Positions 1 through 11,111 of a stretch of 11,111 nucleotides of DNA are shown one piece after another. Within the stretch, counting starts at the first letter, position 1. Each line of letters begins with the position of its first letter. Position numbers and translations under genes: made by a program. The notes beneath the pieces were generated by a model that was given only the letters and a program-made list of their open reading frames with translations, did no database searches and was not told the DNA's origin. The DNA is from Cudoniella acicularis (lineage: Eukaryota > Ascomycota > Leotiomycetes > Helotiales > Helotiaceae), in contig JAAMPI010001717.1 in the NCBI GenBank assembly GCA_013054445.1, positions 1 to 11,111 of the forward strand, given 5' to 3'.

Positions 1-1124
1 TAGTAAGTCTATAAAGTTGTTATTAATATATTATATTCTTTAACTATTTCTCCCTAAGAAGACGACTTAGTAATAAGAAAAAGAGTACAGTTGATTATAC
101 TATTAATCGTTTCAATCACGCTACTAATTATAGCTTTTGCTATCCCCCCCCCGTTTAATTATGATTATTAAAGTCTTTTTAAAATTCGGAGTACTTAAGG
201 AAAGGACCTATTATGAATATGGCTCTAAATTTCAAAGATAATCAGAGATGAAAAGAGTACAGTCTGGGAGTTACGCCAGTACGATTACGATAAGAGGGTC
301 TATATGTTTCAGTGCTTAGTAATGTACATTAGCCTAGATAAAATTTGCTATGTTCACGCCCGGGCTCGCTATATTTTACTTAGCCACGATTCTCAGGTTT
401 AGTCACGTGTGTGGCGTAAGAACAGGTTTCTCAAACATTCTCTCTACAGGTGGCAGCACGCTGGTGCCTGGGTACTGGAGCGCCGTCACCTGTCTCCTTC
501 CCATATCAACATCGCGACGGCGGGACAACATGGATAGAGCCAGTCAAGTCCTAGCGCAAGGGGTACCTCTAATCAAGCGATTAAGGACCCCCTATGAACT
601 GTATTAAAGACACTGTAATCTCCCGTAAAATTTTTCGCGTCTTACACAATAATTCTTGTGGCAGGTAATTGTGGCTGCGTGTGGTGGACTGGTAAGACTT
701 GCCGGAAATTCCCGTACGACATACTCCGAGTTACACCATAGCCTCTCAAGTGTACAGTTGCTTGCAAAACAGGCTTCCCTTCTTGCATGGCAGCTACTAC
801 AGTACTATCCCCCCCCTGGATCTAAGGGACTGCGGTGTAGATCTAGGTTGGAATAACGTGATGTGGATGTAGAGCTCATGATTGGAGAGCGTCCTTTAAA
901 TACCGCGAAAGTCTCCTGATATATAGTCTCCAGGCCAATCAAACAGTATAATCTTAGAAAATCCTAGTTCATTAGATTGAACCGGGGGAGGGATAGTATA
1001 GTGCTCGCTCTCGGCTAGGGTAAAAGGGTTAGCGTATGGCCACTCATACATTCATATTGCTTTGTCCATTCATTGGCAAGTTCAGCAAAAGCAACCGCGC
1101 CTGTATTGAGATGTGATTGCTTTA
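1..1124. other. Region without a supportable gene
   Basis: The first 340 bases are AT-rich with many TpA steps and a C9 run at 144-152, and look partly RIP-mutated. From about 345 to 1124 the composition is more balanced. Short open frames at 350-607 and 656-856 on the plus strand resemble no family I know and have no supporting intron structure. A nested inverted repeat (ACAGGTG at 446-452 and CACCTGT at 487-493, with GGCA/TGCC inside) could form a hairpin. The part just below 1125 would hold the 3' untranslated region of the minus-strand DUF6594 gene. I see no RNA gene and no transposon here. Confidence 0.6.
79..263. repeat. 13-bp direct repeat pair
   Basis: AAAAGAGTACAGT occurs at 79-91 and again at 251-263, 172 bp apart, in otherwise AT-rich DNA. 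It may be the remnant of an older duplication or chance in low-complexity sequence. No function can be assigned. Confidence 0.45.
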
Positions 1125-2624
1125 TCACGGTGTATTCATCGTCTTGGTACGCCTCTTCTTCGCCCACTTGCGACATTTGTATAGGCCTGCCATGAGAGAG
1201 AATAACAAGGCAAGGCCGGCAATGGCAGAGCCGGCAATTGTTGCAATATTTGCAGAGTTTCCCAAAGTAGCACTTTGCGGGTCTAAAGAAGCTGCGGTAG
1301 TCGCTGTAGGCCCGAGGATTTCTATTGTCGTTAGAGTGAGAGCTAACATCGTCGAGTTTGTACCATCAGACGAAGATTCAGGGACTGATGTTTGTTGGAC
1401 AATTGAATCGCTTCGTGAATACGATGCTGGGATAGGAATATTGCTGACAAATAATGTCGTGACTAACAAGTATCTATTAAAATATGAGAAGTGCTTATAT
1501 GTGCAGGATATAGATTTCCATACCCAATAACAGCGACAAAGATCTCGAACCTGCTAGAGCGAGTGAACGCAGCCATAGATAATGCAAGAAACAATGTCAT
1601 GCATGAGATCAGAGCAAGGCTTGCAAATGCATCTCTCATGTACGCGAGGGCAAATAGGGACCCGAGAAACATGAGTATAATGATCATCAGACCAATAGTA
1701 GTCACTATCGTCTGTAAACGTCGACGGGGAAACCGGATCAGTGCGCCGTTCCTGTGTGGATATTTCGAACCCTTGCCAAATAACAATATAAGTCGTCATC
1801 TCGTCTACGCTGCCCTAGGACGACTTACCCTGAATATCCATTCTAGCTGATTTTCAAGCATAGTTGTCAGGATATCTTGCTGGACTACTGGTCCAGCTAG
1901 ACATAGATCGTTTTTGTACTTCCCATCAAGGCGACTGGCCATTCGACCTTCAAGCATTGATGAGGGGCTTTTACTATTAGGGAGATGATTATCGAGAATG
2001 AGTTGCGCAGTTCTCAAGGCTTGCGGATTCGGATTGTCAAGGCTTAAGATCTCATGATATAACTTTAGTGCTCTGTCTGTAGAAAATTAGTGGGAAAAAG
2101 AACGAGGATATAGAGACGATCTGCTACAAACAGTATTCTTTGATTGCTCTCCGGATTGAGTATGCCACCTCTAGTCTCTGTTGCCGAGCCGCGTTTTCGA
2201 TTCCATCCGTAGATACTGGCGAGGGTACGCCAATTTCCCCAGGTGATGACGTGGTGTTTTGACGATCGGTCATACGTCGGCTTGCCAGAGATGTAGTCCT
2301 AGTTGGCTCCCAATTACGTAGATTTATTATTGACTGAACGTCGTTCCAGTCATCTTCATCAAGTTTGTCTTGTTTGGCTTCTAATTCGAAGAGTTCGCCT
2401 TCAAGGTACAAAAGATTTCTAGCGGCTAAGCGTTCGAACCTCCGGAATATAGTGGCACTCTTGTCGGCGTCTTGAGCAATGAACGCAGCAAAGCGTGGAT
2501 AGCCTTCAGGATACTGCTCCCAGTTCTCAGAGATGTCGTCAATGGTGTTAGGCTGGTGGCTCTTAGGAGCTTGCATTTGCTCAATATCTCGTTCCTCTGA
2601 GTCAAGGTCTCGTAGCCCCGACAT
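1125..2624 (-). CDS. DUF6594-type membrane protein with extra C-terminal stalk and helix
   Basis: This is a four-exon gene: 2624-2132, 2076-1829, 1771-1524 and 1473-1125. The introns are 55, 57 and 50 nt, with donors GTTTGT, GTAAGT and GTATGG and acceptors ACAG, CAAG and ATAG. The spliced length is exactly 1338 nt (445 residues plus TGA). I chose the ATG at 2624 because it has a good fungal context (CCACAATG) and sits just before the conserved N-terminus. Residues 40-90 carry the DUF6594 signature (EGYPRFAAFIA, then FRRFERLAARNLLYL). Residues 158-185 are the conserved helix (RAIKEYYRALKLYHEILSL). Three membrane helices follow at about 268-292, 295-316 and 323-341, with the typical RSSRFEIFVAV between the last two. 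The family is common in Pezizomycotina and has no assigned function. Unusually, a Ser/Thr-rich segment (about 348-403) and a fourth helix (404-428), ending in KCRKWAKKRR, continue in the same exon. Base composition is normal and there is no RIP damage, so the gene is probably functional. Confidence 0.87.
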
Positions 2625-2942
2625 TGTGGAAAGCTTTTGTAGTTGATCCTCAATGATACAAAAGATCAACTAGAACTCGTGGCGCTTCTGCTGTGCTGGG
2701 AGGAACGCCTTGTGCTGTCGTGATAATGATGTGAGAGTAGACAAGAGCAGATAAGAGCCCGGCGGTTAGGCAACACTTTCTCCTCTCATGTGACCATGGG
2801 AAGTTTGAGACGCCACACTCGTGACCAAGTTTACAATAGTGGCTGAGCAAAATATAACGAGTCTGGGCTTAATAAGCACTAAATCCTAGAGCTAAAACAT
2901 ATGACGTGTCACCCCCCCGACAGGGTGCGTCTGACGTTAAGT

Positions 2943-2987
2943 GCAGCCACAAACGTCGCAGCCACATGCTTAGCAGCCACAGAGTTT
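2943..2987. repeat. Three GCAGCCACA motifs at 15-bp spacing
   Basis: GCAGCCACA occurs at 2943-2951, 2958-2966 and 2973-2981, with an exact 15-bp period and unrelated 6-bp spacers. It lies about 320 bp upstream of the start codon of the minus-strand DUF6594 gene; on that strand it reads TGTGGCTGC. Fixed motifs with variable spacers suggest clustered protein-binding sites or a decayed 15-bp tandem repeat. I know of no regulator with this site. Confidence 0.6.
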
Positions 2988-3177
2988 ATTAGAATTTTAC
3001 TGACGTTACTATAACCACACCGCGATCCTTGATCGCTTGATTAGAGGAGGTATTAGCCTATGTGGCGATGGCGTATAACATAGCGCGCTCTGGCAGCTAT
3101 AACACTAAGAATAACTTTTTTATATTGTAATGAAACTTATAAATCTATATCTAATCGTTTATTATTTTAAAAGGCGA

Positions 3178-3240
3178 AAAGAGCCTAGTGGTAGTGTCGC
3201 GGATCAAGGGGTCCTATTATACTATAAAAAGAGGCTCTTT
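3178..3240. repeat. Inverted repeat with 9-bp arms
   Basis: AAAGAGCCT (3178-3186) pairs with AGGCTCTTT (3232-3240) around a 45-nt loop. The stretch after the left arm (CTAGTGGTAGTG) looks somewhat like a tRNA A-box, but there is no matching anticodon or T arm. It may be a foldback element or a tRNA-derived scrap; it is too weak to call a tRNA. Confidence 0.4.
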
Positions 3241-3598
3241 ATAATTTAGGTAGGCGGCGACGACTTAGTTAAAATTTTCAGAATTAATAGATTAGGAGTG
3301 TTCGGGAGAGGCATACAATGTAATTAAAATAAAAATATAGAGAAATTTTAATATATTCATAGATTTAAAGTCGCTTGAATTCAAGGTACCTATGATTTGT
3401 CTCGTTACAGGGTGCGTCTCGCTACGTAGGGAGAGACGTTATGCGACTTTCATTTTGGTAACAAGGTTACGTGCTAAGCGAGCCCCTTTTCTTTCTAATC
3501 CTTAGGTTCACCCCAGATTTCGTTAGCGTCTAAAAGTTAGGTGCGCGCCGCGCGCCCTAAAATTGTACTCCGCTTTTACGAGATAGTATAGGAGCTAT

Positions 3599-6500
3599 TT
3601 AAATCCGCTGCCTCTTTTTAGTAGGCAGGCCACCATCTGCCGACCTCTTCCTTTTCCTATGATCAGCTCTCCTAAAATAAGCATTCAAACCTTATGCTAT
3701 AACCAACTTCTCTATCGAATATAGCGATCCGCTAATATTACATGGCTCTGAGTCGCCTTACTTAAGGGATATCGTAAACCTGCCGCCGAGACTTAGCTCT
3801 ACTCGTTTCCGAAAGTTTCTATCTTTACTAATAAAGGAACGCTCGCCGACTTCTCCGGGAATAGGACTATTGTTTAAGTAAAAAGTAGCGTTTGATAGCT
3901 AGTCGAGTAGCAGTTTAAATATAGGATCGCTTCGGCGTACCGAATAGAAGATAGAGCCAGTACCTATATAGTTCTTATTATATACTTTTAGGATTAGGTC
4001 TAATTTAAAGTAGAATAAAGATATAATAGTATAGCGTACTATGTTATTAATAACTTTAGTTATTAAACGATCCTCTTAAGCTTTTAATTAGAGCTTATAT
4101 ATACTCTTTATATTGTCTAGCCTTAGCAATACGCCGTCAAACTCGGTGTCGAGGCGGTGATATCTAGGATGAGTTTAAAAGATCTGTTTGACATGTTTAT
4201 CACGCATCCTTTCCTAGAACATACGACATAATCTAGGGAAAGCTCTATCCTTCTAGAGACTACGGGGACTAGATACTAACATAGATGGCTTGTTATTATT
4301 CGCACGCGGGGTGCCGGTGCCTAGCGAGACTATAAAATCAGGCTCTTTAGCTAGTAGGAACATGGCTGCCACCTCTGAAAGCGCCGAGATTAGCGGGTCA
4401 TTCTCGAGAGGTACTACGTCTTAGAACGTGCCGACCCTATCTATTTTTTTCGGCGGGAAAAACCTATAGGACGCGGTTAATCATATAAAACATTAGAGGG
4501 GAGGAGAGGGTGGCAAACCCAGGTGCTACTAATATAGATCTTATACTACGTCTTGTGTTAGTCAAGACAGTAGAAGAAAGATTGAGTGATTACTTATATT
4601 TCCTAGAGTAGCACTCTCCTATAGCCGTCCTCCGGCCGTATAACGTAGTATCCTACTCTTAATTAGTTTGGCGAATAGAATAATTTTTAGAGGCGTACCT
4701 TGATCTAGGCCTCGGGTTCCTATACCGTTATAGTTTATGAAAATATAGCTCGATGGTTTACGGATAGTAGTAACCGGTAAACTTACTCGGGCACCTATAG
4801 AAGTTGCGTATAAGTAGTCTAAGATAGTCTTTTCTTTTCCGAATACTGTCTATAACGCGGCCTCGATATTTTCTACTAGGTATAAACTATCCGCTCGAAA
4901 CGCCTTTAAAAGTATATATATACTAGATAGGATAGGTATACGGGATAGGATAGGGGATAGGATATTAGATATAATAGGGATAAAAACTTGCCGAGGTTTG
5001 AAAGTAAGATCTGCCAACCTTATAAATGCTTCTATAGAGTCATCGATAGACGAGCCGTTAAGGAATATGTCTATAATGATCAAGCCCCCTAGGCATATCA
5101 GTATAGAGTTCTCTAAGATCTTAACGGGATAACGTACCTAAACTAATATTAAATACGACTTTAAAGAACTTTTATAATAAGATCCGTAGCCTAATACGGT
5201 CTTCTATTCTTTTTATATACTTTAGAGGTAAGATATCTCGTGTCTCTCCTCTATCGATATATAAGACCCCCCCTACTCCGGTAGTAGGAGGATAGATCTT
5301 TACGACTACCTCCTTAGGCATCTCGACTCCGTAGAGGAAACAGCGATAGACTCTAAAGATCTAGGGGTCGTCTACGTAGCACTCTCCGAATACTAGAACA
5401 TAGTTTTCGCAGACAATATGTCTATATAGTAAGCCATACTAAGGCCTACGGCGTAAACAAACGAGACAGGTAATACTACTCTAGATATTACGCTAACGAT
5501 CCTTAAAAATTCTAAGGTTAACTCTATAAATCTCTAACGAAGGTGTCCCCTCGCTATAGATAGATTGCTTAAAAAAATTCATATAGCCGGCTTTCGACGT
5601 TACTAATAAAGCCACTTCGGAGGATCATATCTCGAGATCCTTTAAAGGCTATCACTCTAGACTCACTTACCTAGTAAAATACGTCCCTATATAAAGTTCG
5701 AAAAACGTCCTTAAGATCAAACACTAGATCGAAAATTAGAATCTATAAATCTTTAAAGAGGTGACTATAGCTTATTATAAGTTTCCGGAGGATAATTATC
5801 TAAGAGGATACTCGAAGCGATAATAGGGACTACAAACTCAGTTAGCTCCTTTACCGACTTTATATACTTTAGGAAGATAGATAAATGTTTAGCTAAGTCT
5901 TTAGTAATAGGATTCTGTTTCCTCGAGGCCTTAATAAAATCGAATATACCCTTAAAGGGTTAAGAAAAGTAGTCGCAAGCGTATCGGAAAAGAGTATCGA
6001 AATACGTTATAGAGAACAAACTACGGGTGTCTTCTCTACTCCTTCGTACTTTATCCGATTTATTTAAAAGACACTCCTTTAAGCGTCTATATCGAGCTTT
6101 AAAAGAGACTTTATAATCTAAGAGAAGAGCTATAACGTGAATGTCCGAGAACTGTTTAGACAGCTCGTATATCGTTTCCTCTTTTAGTAACTAGAGAAAG
6201 GCCTTTCTAGCCTCTTTCTCTACGTAGGTTCTTAGACGTATCTTCTCGGTCACGATAATTACTCTAGGGTACGTGCTTCTTAGAAGCGTCGACGACTCGC
6301 CTTTCTCTAGCCATACGGCTAAGTGGCGCGTGATCTGTCTAAAACCACTAAGGTCAGTAGAAAAGAAGTAAAAGACGTCTATAAAGGGCAAAAGGAGACG
6401 GGAATAAATACTATCTATAGTTCTATCTAGAGTAATACGCGAGTCTACTATAGGTTTTAGTAAGGCTCGTCTTATTGTTTTATAACATTTCTCTACGGAA

Positions 6501-6901
6501 GGCACCTTTGTCCTTAAGCTCGGCTAAGGGAGGTCACCGTCTATAATAAAGATCGGTCTACTATTAAAAATGCTAGATAAGTCAAGGTAAAGATATATTT
6601 CGCCGGTATGTCGATGGCTTCTAAATTTCCGAACCTTCTTCGTTCTAAATAGCTCTCGAAGAGCTAATGACTTTGACGTATTGCCGATTAACACGAAAAG
6701 GCTAGGCTGCTATATGTCTAGATCCTATAAGTGATAAGTAAGCGTCTGAAGCCTGTCAGATTCGAGAAGAGAAGTCTTATTACTATATGTTCTAAAGCTG
6801 AGCTAGTGGCTATAGTTATAACGCTTTATAGTTGATAAAGCAGCGAGGTACTAGGAGTGAAGATGTTATACTTTCGTTTGGGATAAAGAATATAGAGTTA
6901 T
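3599..6901 (-). pseudogene. RIP-inactivated RING/patatin-like phospholipase gene
   Basis: This is a relic of a protein of about 1033 residues, of the fungal type often labelled FabD/lysophospholipase-like. The start was probably ATG, now ATA at 6901-6899; the stop is TAA at 3601-3599. Order: a family-specific N-terminal half (for example FFSTDLSGFRQITRHLAVWL near 6360-6300); a RING finger at 5468-5331 (CLVC, HIVCEN, CFLY; three ligand Cys now Tyr); the patatin anion-hole motif at 5255-5235, now DRGETRD where DGGGxRG is expected; the nucleophile Ser codon at 5144-5142 (expected GxSxG); the catalytic Asp of DGG at 4420-4418; and a basic nuclear-signal-like tail at 3661-3602 (HRKRKR and KKRQR). 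Four introns remain: 5137-5089, 4698-4653, 4597-4546 and 4518-4464; the third donor is ATAAGT instead of GTAAGT. A 1-nt deletion lies near 5755-5782. About 31 in-frame stops, nearly all TAA or TAG, replace Gln and Trp. Live relatives would hydrolyse acyl esters of lipids; this copy cannot make protein. Confidence 0.9.
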
Positions 6902-7499
6902 ATAACGAAAGGGGGGAAAGGGGGGATCGAAATAAGCACTTAGGTAAAGCTAAATTGGGCTCTGGTTAGAGATCGCTAGTAGTCTCTATCTATTTTAGGA
7001 AACATGGTAGCTAGAATAGGCCCCTTCTAAAAGGGAGCCAAAATTGGATCTAGGGGTACCGAAGTAGCTTAGTAATCCGGGTGGATATGCTTGTAGAGTC
7101 TTAAATCTGCCTATATAGTATCGGCGGGTTTGAGTGTTTTGAAAAAAAAAAACACACGCTTTCCTGATAGATCACTAACGTTCCTTATAATTTAGACACT
7201 CTTAACAGTCTACTCCGACGGATAGCTTATACACATTTCACTATAAATTCTCTTTAAGATCTGAAAATTACTTTATACTATATGATTACTTAAGCGTATG
7301 ATTTGACAAACTTGATAATAAATGACTAATATAATACCGCTATAAGTTAGTAAAATTAAAATCAAATCATATTATAACGTCAAACTAACCCTGTTTTACG
7401 CACCTAAAGCGGACATTCTAACACCTTTTATACTATATCTATAGTTTTCCTTTATTCGCTTTATACCGATAATACCTGAGCTACGTACTACCTTGCCTT
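6902..7499. other. Intergenic, upstream of the patatin-like relic
   Basis: No gene relic could be read here, although the minus-strand fragment described at 7925-7500 may run on to about 7440. The segment just above 6901 would be the promoter of the patatin-like gene; it contains two G6 runs (6911-6916 and 6920-6925) separated by AAA, a pyrimidine tract on the coding strand. A hairpin with GTGTTTT at 7134-7140 and AAAACAC at 7149-7155 surrounds an A-run. RIP-type bias is present but uneven. Confidence 0.5.
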
Positions 7500-7925
7500 A
7501 CCAATCTATAATGTCGTTCGCATTTGATAATTAATTATAGCCTGTTAGAGTCTCTTAACAATTATCCTTAACTCTTCTAAGAGATCCACGCTTGCCCCTA
7601 ACTTGCTCTACTTATAATCAAGCTCTTGCCTTAATCGACTATTTTCCCTAGTCCTTTAATCAATAATCTTAGAGAGGCTAGGAGTATAGGCGGTTTTAGA
7701 TGCTTGTATGTTTTCACTAGTGGCCTTAATTGCTACTGACGTCCCGTTGTTACGAGCAATTTCAGCGTCGATAGGGGTAGGTGCTAGGGGTCGGTCGGAC
7801 ACCGGGATCATAAGACGCGGTTTTAGCTTCCTGAATTTATATATGGCTATTTTCTTATGAATTTCCTACTGATCTAAGTTTTGGTTTTAGCAGATGTGAT
7901 ATATTTTTATAATCCCCTGGCCCTA
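7500..7925 (-). pseudogene. Broken gene fragment with coiled-coil-like region
   Basis: A single minus-strand frame runs through this stretch with about six internal TAA/TAG codons, each in a position where Gln or Trp would fit. The readable part includes HKKIAIYKFRKLKPRLMIPV near 7860-7800, then DRPLAPTPIDAEIARNNGTS, then a charged heptad-like stretch (RTRENSRLRQELDYK and LGASVDLLEELRIIVKRL) near 7655-7530. The pattern resembles short uncharacterised proteins that are multi-copy in some ascomycete genomes; I recognise the style but not a function. RIP damage is lighter here than in the flanking relics. Both ends are uncertain. It lies between the ferric reductase and phospholipase relics, on the same strand. 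Confidence 0.42.
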
Positions 7926-8517
7926 TTAAGGTGGCCGTACTACGTACTTAGAGGAGCTCGTTCTGGCTCCGAGTATAAATTTAGTATTAGTTAAGCCGTA
8001 GGGATCTTATTTAGGCTCCCCTGATTTTGACATATATAATTCTACTCCGTACTCATATAGCTAAAATTAGATTCGGTAAGAGAATTAAAAAGGTATTAAA
8101 CCTATATACTCCTAGGATAGAATAATAGGGGTAGAGAAAATTAAGGTAATATTATAAGAGCTAGCTCTATTTAAGGGTTTACGTAATTATACGCTAATAT
8201 TAGCAGAACAAACAGTTATAAGAGCGTAATAATCTCCTCGCTTATTTCTATAGATATCAAGTAATAAGGTCATAGAGAGGCAGGCTAGTTCGAGCTCGGA
8301 TAGTTAGGTATTAATATATAATATAATACTAATCTATAATAAGGAAAGTGTTATTAGTACTTATTCCGAATTATAACCCTATTAATAGAAAGAAGTTCTA
8401 GAGTCTACGTAAAAAGGAAAGAAAAAAGTAAAAAAGAGGGAGGTTATAACTTCCGTATTCTTAAAGGCATAAAAACATAGCTTAGACGTTTCCGTCCCTA
8501 TCTTTCCTACTTCTACG
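7926..8517. other. RIP-mutated spacer, content unidentified
   Basis: This lies between the coiled-coil-like relic and the 3' end of the ferric reductase relic. It is strongly TpA-rich, with a purine-rich stretch on the plus strand at about 8398-8450. No frame could be read that resembles a known family after allowing for Gln/Trp stops. A further broken gene may be hidden here. Confidence 0.45.
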
Positions 8518-10370
8518 TTAAGCCTTACCATTTAAGCGCCCGTCGTTTCCCTAAGCCGAGTAGGGACGATATTCTAACTCTTTAAGATCAATTGTCTTAT
8601 CCCGTATTTACCGAACAATCATATAAATCTTATCACTAGTCTCGTTGTTTATATATACTATGTTCCTATGTTTTAGCAGTGATATAAGTACTAGAGTAGA
8701 TATAAGACTTATAGGAAATGACTGTCCGACCCTCCCTGCCTTTAATCTTAGATCGGATAAGAGTTTCGGTATTTATATAGTCATATGTCATTTTAATTCG
8801 CGTCTTAAGACGAGCGACATCTCCTGGTTCCGTTTCGCTAGAAATATAGTTGCCGAGGACAAAAAGCTAGATGTCGAGTATCTGTTATATAGTTAATAAT
8901 AGTATCTTAAGGAATACGTACGTAGATCAAACCCTATTAGTATCTCTTTTAAGTAGTTCTATTATTATGTCGGCAACCTAGGCTAAATATACTTTTTTAC
9001 GAGCTATTAGTAGGAATATTTAGTAGTAAGAGTTAGAGGACTTACTTTTAGAGTCTAGCTCCTAAAAGACGGTAATCCTTCGATTCTTTTCTCTAGAATT
9101 ATAGTACTCCTTTAAGAGCCGTATGATATACGGTAGCTGACCTGCTATTCCGATGCCGGTGGCGAACAAGAGGATAGTGCCGTATGATTTAAGATCTAGT
9201 TCTTTTCTATATAGCCCTTCGATTATAGCTCTTATCTCGTTGCGTTGATCGACATTATTCGTAGTATAACGGAACAGGTCTTGCGTAAACCTCTTCCTCT
9301 TTTATATAATAAAAACAATAACATCCCCTTTAATATCTCGATACTACTAGGACATAAAAAAGGGGTGCGATTATACGAACGAGGTATGGCTTACGCCTAG
9401 GATACTAAGGTATACATATTGACCGGCTCGAGGTCGCCACGTTCTCGACACCCGAACGTATATATAGACAGTATCTGATATAGGTATATCCCTATTCTTA
9501 GTCTTATAAGTTATTGTTTATACTGTTGCCCGGTTAAGGGGCTTTCTATGCTTGATATTGCGGTAGAGGGTCTATCCGAACCGGAGGGCACCTATAGCTA
9601 CTTAAAGGCAAATTACGGCGAATAAGTATACTATTAGCGCCTTCTAGAGATTCTTCGACGCGCTATATAGATATATCGCCGCTATTAGTATAGCGGTAAG
9701 AATCAGATAAAGCTTTTAAAAGATCTTATAGAAACGTCGGCGTATATATACTATAGAAGAGAATAGTAGGACCGCGCTAACAGCGCTAGCCTTAAAGCGT
9801 TAGCTCTCGATAAATTAAAGGAACGAGATGACTTACTACTAGCTTGGCTACCCTAGATATATTATATATATTAACACGCTAAGAAGACAAGGCCGCTACT
9901 ATATAGACTACGCCCTTAGCTATGACGACGCTCCCTAGCCACTCGTATATACTAGCAGACGCGCTTAGCCGTACCCTAAAAATGCTAGTAATAGGGTTTA
10001 TACGTTCTCCTAAAGCTAATAGTATTAGGTTGATTATATATAGTAAAGCAGAACGTTCTACTAGGCTTACGATATCTTTTACCCTAATAGTAATATAAAT
10101 GGCATTTTCTACTAGGAATAATATAACTAACATTATATTAAACCGTATTGTCGAAAATCTTATATATCGGTTAAAGCCTCTTATAGAAAGACGAACCTAG
10201 GGGCAAAACAAATGCTTAAGGAAGCAAGAAATCTTTATGATTAGATATAAAGCGTAGAATAAAACCACGAGGCCTTTAAGGGCAACAGTATACTACTATA
10301 TAATGTCTATAGCTAAGTTTGTAAGACTTGAAGGATAAGGCACGCTCGGCTCCCTTAGTGCTTCTTATAT
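8518..10370 (-). pseudogene. RIP-inactivated ferric reductase-like gene
   Basis: This is a relic of a membrane flavocytochrome of about 583 residues that would pass electrons from NAD(P)H through FAD and two hemes to ferric iron across a membrane. The probable start is ATA (once ATG) at 10370; the stop is TAA at 8520-8518. Two introns, 9836-9791 (46 nt) and 8712-8658 (55 nt), give a spliced length of exactly 1752 nt. The second donor is ATAAGT in place of GTAAGT. The N-terminal part is hydrophobic. The four expected heme-ligand His codons are all TAY (Tyr): 9947, 9905, 9709 and 9667, each pair 14 residues apart as the family requires. The FAD part shows RAGQYVYLSI (near 9435-9400) and SHPFF (HPF at 9367-9359). 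The nucleotide part shows FATGIGIAGQLPYI (near 9166-9125). The C-terminus ends near DLKELEYRPYSA. About 22 in-frame stops, almost all TAA/TAG, abolish function. Confidence 0.9.
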
Positions 10371-10554
10371 TTAATATAAATAGGACTATTTTCTAAATAA
10401 GATCTATTTTAGTTATACCTTAAAACAGAATATAGGTGCCGGAAATGGCCCCTCCTATATTACGAATCATTAGCCTTACCGTGACTACCTTTTACTGATT
10501 TAAGACAGCATCCTCTAAGGTATGTGAATCTCCTTTAGTAGCTTCCGGACTATT
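10371..10554. promoter_or_regulatory. Head-to-head intergenic region of two relics
   Basis: These 184 bp separate the inferred starts of the ferric reductase relic (leftward) and the MADS-like relic (rightward), so they would have served as a shared divergent promoter. RIP has altered the sequence, and no TATA box or binding site can be assigned with any confidence. The call rests only on gene orientation. Confidence 0.35.
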
Positions 10555-10791
10555 ATAGCTGATCAGACGAAGAAAGAACGGAACACGTAACGAAGGAAAC
10601 GGAGATAGGGTGTAGAACATAAAGCCTACGAAATAGGAAAACTATACGGTTTTAAGGTGGCACTAATTATATATAACCCTAAAAACGGCGAGTACTTTAC
10701 GTTTAGAACCACGGATCAAACTTTATAGAATATAGATCAGATTGTGAGTGAGCTATTAGAAGTTATATTCTATACCACTAACCTATAAACA
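10555..10791 (+). pseudogene. RIP-damaged MADS-box-like gene
   Basis: A plus-strand frame begins at ATA (10555-10557, probably once ATG). After two TAA/TAG codons in Gln/Trp positions, it reads like the core of a MADS (SRF-type) DNA-binding domain: KKERNT, RRKRR, HKAYEIGKLYGFKVALIIYN, then GEYFTFRTTD. The match is to the basic helix (many Arg/Lys), the KAYEIGKL helix and the VALIIYN strand. Ascomycetes have many short single-domain MADS-like proteins of this sort, and live ones would be nuclear DNA-binding regulators. The end is uncertain: TAA at 10789-10791 may be the natural stop or a mutated Gln, and the frame continues with further stops to TGA at 11002-11004. RIP fades near 10800, within or just past this gene. 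The target genes are unknown. Confidence 0.55.
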
Positions 10792-11111
10792 GCTTGCGCA
10801 TCCAAAATCCCAGAACAAGCTTCCTAAAGATATAGAGAAGGATATGTCGAAGAGACATTCGAGTTCCGTACGAAGGAATAGATCACGGCGAGCGGGGAGG
10901 GAGGCCACATCTCGTAGAGTGACTCTAGAGGGAGCGGTTTTAAAGGACCAAGATCTACTAGAAAGAAGGATAATACCGTTTCTGCCGGACCCGCTATCCT
11001 TTGATCTATTAGTAAATATAAAACAATGGCATGGCCTGTCGTAAGGCCAGGGTACGCTGTTAAAAGTCAGTAGGCAAGATAGGGCGAGTGGTTCGAATCT
11101 TTCTGTTTAGC
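10792..11111. other. Right edge of the RIP block and unassigned DNA
   Basis: CpA dinucleotides reappear from about 10800, so RIP fades here. One open frame (10844-11044, plus) codes for an Arg/Ser-rich peptide of 66 residues with no family resemblance; it may be chance. GGTTCGAATC at 11090-11099 looks like a tRNA T-loop, but the flanking bases do not pair into a T stem or acceptor stem. Nothing else could be supported. Confidence 0.4.

What the first reader, a model, noticed from the sequence alone, without database searches (positions are those of the whole stretch)
3110..10860. RIP-dead block carries phospholipase and ferric reductase genes, as in Starship giant transposons
Seen: about 7.7 kb with near-complete CpA-to-TpA conversion, holding gene relics but no recognisable retrotransposon or DDE transposase. 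Known: Starships of Pezizomycotina are mobilised by a DUF3435 tyrosine recombinase and repeatedly carry patatin-like phospholipases, ferric reductases, DUF3723 genes and NLRs. Inference: two of these marker families side by side on one strand, with a coiled-coil-like gene between and a MADS-like gene in front, suggest a fragment of Starship cargo silenced by RIP after duplication. The MADS-like and coiled-coil-like genes would then be candidate, less described cargo.
Basis: partly seen in the sequence, partly recalled or inferred. Interest (0 to 1): 0.85.

Follow-up and report, generated by a model that had tools for sequence, protein, structure and literature searches.

The report
RIP-silenced repeated gene-carrying fungal element
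This stretch of a cup-fungus genome is one worn copy of a large repeated DNA element that carried ordinary-looking genes and was mutated to death by the fungus's own anti-repeat defence; it resembles Starship cargo, but the gene that would make it a Starship was not found beside the copies examined.

Summary
Window 3442-11111 (not from 3110) is strongly RIP-mutated and holds relics of a patatin-like and a ferric reductase gene on the - strand and a MADS-like gene on the + strand. It is one of at least ten copies in this assembly, almost certainly Cudoniella acicularis (Helotiales). Copies form two subfamilies, two are collinear for about 19 kb, and past the window end comes a thioesterase gene. 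Transversions at codon positions indicate that the patatin-like and thioesterase genes were under purifying selection before RIP; copies are mosaics. The MADS-like and thioesterase genes have no close relative elsewhere in the assembly. The Starship reading is only partly supported: DUF3435 is on 16 contigs but on 0 of 18 counted as carrying the element, some reaching 24-50 kb past the block; DUF3723 is on 1 of 18; no element ends were found. I call it a derelict gene-bearing mobile element with unidentified mobiliser. Window 1-3441 is another thing: a TA-target inverted-repeat transposon inserted into it, with RIP-mutated ends and an unmutated single-copy DUF6594 gene inside.

The parts
1..3441 (.). 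Separate TA-target terminal-inverted-repeat transposon (about 76 bp of its left end lie off the contig); RIP-mutated repeated ends (1-~570 and ~2810-3441), unmutated single-copy interior; not part of the block but inserted into it
1463..2669 (-). DUF6594 gene (PF20237, 2e-15 and 1.6e-10 in two of three open pieces) inside the inverted-repeat transposon
   Evidence: no other match to 571-2716 in the assembly at E <= 0.001
3440..3441 (.). TA at the junction of the inverted-repeat transposon with the block; the uninterrupted site was aligned in copy C234, and copy C65 reads alike by eye
3442..11111 (.). RIP-silenced copy of the large gene-bearing element (cut by the contig end)
3601..6724 (-). 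Relic of a patatin-like phospholipase gene (pieces about 5960-6724, 5121-5480, 4850-5137, 3601-4075)
   Evidence: mapped from copy C308; family; codon-position test
7219..8281 (.). Central segment more diverged than its flanks (71-74% identity to five long subfamily-1 copies over 7219-8018 and 78% to C127 from 7572, against 84-88% in the flanks); lacks about 520 bp present in C1097
7525..7759 (-).
8051..8277 (.). Segment inverted relative to the six other copies in which it was matched (C1097, C1430, C1734, C308, C810, C127)
8551..10196 (-). Relic of a ferric reductase gene (transmembrane 9726-10196, FAD 9062-9571, NAD 8551-8772)
   Evidence: coordinates mapped from C308
10558..11107 (+). Relic of a MADS-like (SRF-TF) gene, 4 stops in the first matched piece and 1 in the second

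Best explanation
The block is one dead copy of a large dispersed gene-bearing mobile element, about 19 kb or more, of Cudoniella acicularis. It carried a gene of unknown family, a patatin-like phospholipase, a ferric reductase, a MADS-like protein and a 4HBT thioesterase. Shown: multiplicity, collinearity, two subfamilies, RIP, mosaic copies, and a codon-position bias of transversions in two genes. Inferred: that copies spread by transposition while the genes worked, that RIP then silenced the copies, and that the element behaved like a cargo-carrying transposon. Its mobiliser was not found; a Starship whose captain lies off these contigs or was lost is possible but not shown.
For: The MADS-like gene is on 10 contigs including the window, with 3 further hits of 31-32% identity elsewhere; the thioesterase follows it on 8 of these, with one 30% paralogue elsewhere. 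C1097 7161-26160 is collinear with C1430 5743-24925. C810 carries a second, partial copy in opposite orientation. Transversion distances 0.1-4.5% within and 7.2-10.6% between subfamilies, with transitions in excess. Transversions by codon position, C308 against C1593: patatin-like 39/30/76 (P 2e-6), thioesterase 29/16/42 (P 0.003). Left segment C1097-C1636 1.5% (8 of 528 sites) beside a block at 7.3%. RIP index positive in the window block and in the held stretches of 14 of 14 other element contigs.
Against: No mobilising gene, ends or target duplications of the element were found. The codon-position test is not significant for the ferric reductase (31/29/38 against C1593) or the MADS-like gene (20/12/17). 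The sequence left of the patatin-like gene differs among copies, which duplication with rearrangement would also give. Only part of each contig could be read.
Confidence: 0.6

Rival explanations
1. Derelict Starship cargo (a narrower form of the best explanation): a DUF3435-captained giant element whose captain is off these contigs, lost, or degraded beyond recognition; copies then RIP-silenced.
For: Patatin-like and ferric reductase genes are families listed as previously reported to be prevalent in Starships (PMC12134995, passages). RIP-mutated derelict Starships and cargo swapping between elements are described (PMC11623301, passages). The assembly has DUF3435 on 16 contigs, several RIP-mutated. 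DUF3723 lies on C810. C1660, left out of the 18 because it matches only over 284 bases, carries a DUF3435 match about 29 kb from that stretch. Mosaic copies.
Against: 0 of 18 element contigs has a PF11917 match, although the search finds RIP-mutated ones elsewhere with up to 16 stops inside a match. DUF3723 on 1 of 18 is no more than chance.
Confidence: 0.3
2. Segmental or subtelomeric duplication of an ordinary accessory gene cluster, mutated by RIP because it was duplicated.
For: MADS-like and thioesterase genes may be linked outside this species: in Tricladium varicosporioides both families are reported on a contig of length 521,878, and in jgi records both on one of length 7,211. No ends were found. 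Telomere repeats were matched on one contig only, so subtelomeric position could not be tested.
Against: At least ten copies in two deep subfamilies, no close unmutated relative of the MADS-like or thioesterase gene in the assembly, opposite copies on one contig and mosaic copies across subfamilies fit a dispersed repeat better.
Confidence: 0.2
3. An unrelated giant element (for example a large DDE, Helitron or retroelement derivative) that captured these genes.
For: Fungal DNA transposons capture and amplify host genes that RIP then inactivates (PMC6710886, abstract). A gene of unknown family lies left of the patatin-like gene in C1097, and homologous DNA in C308, C1430 and C1084.
Against: No transposase or polymerase family in 20 open-frame pieces scanned from C308 and from C1097 18-26 kb (9 of the 12 pieces of 62 residues or more there). 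These pieces are short and RIP-broken, so this is weak, and no whole-genome search for such families was made.
Confidence: 0.2

Closest known systems
Starship elements (Pezizomycotina, DUF3435 captain)
   Same: Gene-bearing and large; patatin-like and ferric reductase genes; RIP-mutated derelict copies and cargo swapping are described for Starships (PMC11623301, passages).
   Different: No captain on any of the 18 contigs counted; DUF3723 on one; ends not seen; ten or more copies of one element in one genome.
hAT-captured, RIP-inactivated histone H3 repeats of Pseudocercospora fijiensis and relatives (PMC6710886, abstract and outline only)
   Same: Genes amplified on a repeat and inactivated by RIP.
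   Different: There one housekeeping gene on a hAT element with an intact original; here several accessory genes, no close intact relative of two of them in the assembly, mobiliser unknown. The inverted-repeat transposon at 1-3441 is nearer in form, but its gene is single-copy and unmutated.

Membership tests
Starship | DUF3435 (PF11917) tyrosine recombinase captain as first gene | tested here: not met
   26 matches on 16 contigs, 0 of 18 element contigs; four contigs with only short or weak matches (C1660, C1449, C448, C1080) were not counted, and C1660 has a DUF3435 match; contigs are fragments, so a captain beyond their ends cannot be excluded
Starship | Element ends with direct repeats / target-site duplication and an empty site | tested here: inconclusive
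The apparent break at C1097:22695 is not clean
Starship | Associated cargo: patatin-like and ferric reductase genes (not diagnostic) | tested here: met
   patatin only weakly by Pfam
Starship | Associated cargo: DUF3723 (not diagnostic) | tested here: inconclusive
   1 of 18 contigs (C810:22276-23622), chance P 0.23
Starship | Presence/absence polymorphism among isolates | not testable with these tools
   one assembly only
RIP-inactivated repeat | CpA->TpA bias, high TpA/ApT, multi-copy | tested here: met

The most novel reading that the evidence does not exclude
A family of giant gene-bearing elements of Helotiales that is not a Starship and moves by an unrecognised enzyme, with a MADS-like regulator, a thioesterase, a ferric reductase and a patatin-like phospholipase as resident genes, at least two of them kept under selection, shuffled between two subfamilies, perhaps with the gene of unknown family left of the patatin-like gene as part of its machinery.
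Probability: 0.2. Interest if true: 0.75.

Novelty: new member of a known kind. Interest (0 to 1): 0.42.

Why it matters
It offers a case where Starship-type cargo is amplified to ten or more copies with no captain in reach, which tests whether cargo content alone can be used to call Starships. It also links a MADS-like gene and a thioesterase gene to repeated DNA, with relatives reported from other Leotiomycetes, from Geoglossum and from jgi, lgn and ena sequences.

Tried and rejected
Telomere pattern as a test of subtelomeric position: matches on one contig only (C667), uninformative. C1097:22695 as an element end: homology stops there in C810 and C1187, but both run on for about 50 bp with each other, so not a clean end. 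Structure prediction of the unknown left gene (mean pLDDT 34) and of the MADS-like protein (49): too poor to use; no fold search was run. Viral-contig scan for the MADS-like gene: 5 pattern matches, none a relative. Papers holding 'MADS-box', 'Starship' and 'fungi' together: 0; 'Cudoniella' and 'Starship': 0; both in the held open-access library only. The first merging script flipped minus-strand loci wrongly; found and redone; no result is taken.

Full report
What the window is. It is the whole contig C796 (11,111 bases) of a 53.2 Mb assembly of 1,836 contigs. A public protein, G7Y89_g5518 of Cudoniella acicularis, sits on a contig of 42,998 bases, the length of C1097 here, and shares an exact run of 78 residues with a frame of C1097. 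I take the organism to be Cudoniella acicularis (Helotiales, Leotiomycetes). This is an inference from one contig length and one protein.

Two different repeats. The search of 1-3000 matches many contigs at 1-~570 and from 2717 to 3000 but finds nothing else for 571-2716. The search of 3001-7000 shows short matches at about 3002-3445 on one set of contigs and long matches from about 3574/3600 on another. Termini of the first family were printed: 7 of 7 left ends start TAACGTC; of 15 right ends besides the window's, 12 finish in CGTTA or CATTA and 3 (C1445, C1293, C1075) differ. A TA target is likely. Thirteen contigs carry a left-end and a right-end match, in the same orientation in each, spanning 2.2-7.4 kb. 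The block starts at 3442: copy C234 continues there without the transposon, and C65 reads alike.

The block as a repeat. Copies of 3601-7217 are on C1097, C1430, C308, C1734, C234 and in part C65 and C810 (86-88%), and on C1084, C1636 and C1593 (74-75%), with fragments on C1440 and C1166. Copies of 8282-11111 are on C1430, C127, C810, C308, C1097 and in part C1734; from about 8564 on C1593, C1426 and C1084, with parts on C1440. The MADS-like gene is found on 10 contigs, the window included, C1440 being the most distant (36%); 3 other hits are 31-32% identical. The thioesterase, beyond the window end, is on 8 of these contigs next to the MADS-like gene, plus one 30% paralogue on C1381. To the right, C1097 18161-26160 is collinear with C1430 almost throughout and with C810, C127 and others in part. 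To the left, C1097 7067-8626 is shared by C308, C1430 (from 7161), C1084 and in part C1636 and C65. C1097 and C1430 are thus collinear for about 19 kb; neither end was reached. The lists of the genome search score best candidates only, so copy numbers are lower bounds.

RIP. Indices are, context counts. From C308 to the window: CpA 336 of 664 to T, CC 63 of 710, CG 80 of 662, CT 107 of 1150; the reverse: CpA 51 of 369, CC 41 of 595, CG 51 of 662, CT 76 of 1170. C308 has the lowest RIP index among the held element contigs; its MADS-like frame is open over query residues 1-158, with 2 stops in the tail, and its thioesterase match has one stop.

Genes. Ferric reductase: FAD_binding_8 5.3e-11 on a read-through with joined pieces, Ferric_reduct 7.6e-5 on an open piece but under its cut-off. 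MADS-like: SRF-TF 5.8e-8; thioesterase: 4HBT 9.8e-5. Patatin-like: no Pfam hit in window or C308 pieces; PF01734 at 0.015 and 0.12 in joined pieces of C1084 and C1636, under cut-off, from profile position 1; PADLOC phospholipase models at 1.2e-8 to 3.9e-6 for the same two; best PDB match of a C308 piece a cUMP-AMP-activated phospholipase at 0.015. Left of it lies a gene with no Pfam hit and two protein relatives, one of them the C1097 gene model itself.

Selection and exchange. RIP makes transitions, so transversions were counted by codon position against C308. Patatin-like: C1593 39/30/76 (P 2e-6), C1084 33/29/68 (P 6e-6), window 10/9/22 (P 0.006), C1430 1/1/4 (P 0.1). Thioesterase: C1593 29/16/42 (0.003), C1084 28/16/43 (0.001), C1426 29/12/33 (0.03), C1430 4/6/12 (0.03). 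Ferric reductase: C1593 31/29/38, C1084 31/30/39, C1426 28/29/37, window 7/4/10 (P 0.12-0.15), C1430 0/0/3 (P 0.04). MADS-like: C1593 20/12/17, C1084 20/13/17, C1426 20/12/15 (P 0.5-0.6), window 2/3/6 (0.12). Copies are related, so these are not independent tests, and they are not corrected for number. Distances change along copies: C1097 and C1636 differ by 1.5% in transversions (8 of 528) in the left segment and 7.3% in the block beside it. The window's centre (7219-8018) is 71-74% identical to five long copies, and 78% to C127 over 7572-8018, against 84-88% in the flanks. Its transversion figures (5-12%) include few aligned sites and the inverted segment, so I lean on the identities. Copies look like mosaics.

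Starship or not. PF11917 gives 26 matches on 16 contigs, none among the 18 contigs counted as carrying the element. Dropped before that count: C1660 (284 bases), C1449 (763 bases at 66%), C448 (87 bases) and C1080 (235 bases), for short or weak matches. C1660 does carry a DUF3435 match, about 29 kb away. PF12520 gives 54 matches on 26 contigs, one of them (C810) among the 18. A captain is said to be always the first gene of a Starship (PMC11623301, passages); captain-less or degraded elements are reported (PMC12134995 and PMC11623301, passages). The defining feature was tested and not met within reach of these contigs, so I do not file it as a Starship.

Relatives elsewhere. The MADS-like protein has 16 matches at E <= 0.001 among 33 candidates: six at 86-90% (jgi, lgn and ena sources and one unnamed ncbi record), then at lower identity Tricladium varicosporioides, Geoglossum, Xylogone and unnamed ones. 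The thioesterase has 29 among 162. In T. varicosporioides both occur on a contig of length 521,878, and in jgi records both on one of 7,211. Equal length suggests, but does not prove, the same contig.

Noticed in passing
window 1-3441: A TA-target inverted-repeat transposon whose repeated ends are RIP-mutated (composite index +0.74 and +0.50) while its single-copy interior with a DUF6594 gene is not (-0.38). The held interiors of two other members (C1462 whole, C1517 nearly whole) gave no match of 100 bases or more to it or to each other beyond about 600 bases at the ends, so the family may capture different DNA.
   Followed up: partly
C1626, C1462, C503, C1075, C940, C1820: 6 of 16 contigs with a DUF3435 match also carry sequence of this inverted-repeat family (41 of 1836 contigs; hypergeometric P 6e-7, not corrected for contig length or repeat-rich compartments).
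   Followed up: partly
C1196:8148-9795 and 14831-15205: A DUF3723 gene and a distant MADS-like relative (31%) about 5 kb apart.
   Followed up: no
C1660:37646-38167 and 66905-67188: A DUF3435 match in a 681-residue open frame on the same contig as a 284-base match (71%) to the right part of the element.
   Followed up: no
C1389:12401-12823 and 23125-30672: The best ferric reductase NAD-domain match of the assembly, in an open frame, on a contig with two DUF3723 stretches broken by stops.
   Followed up: no
C1080:38173-38407 (L066): A relative of window 7525-7759 in a stretch without RIP signature (composite index -0.27) outside the counted copies of the element.
   Followed up: partly
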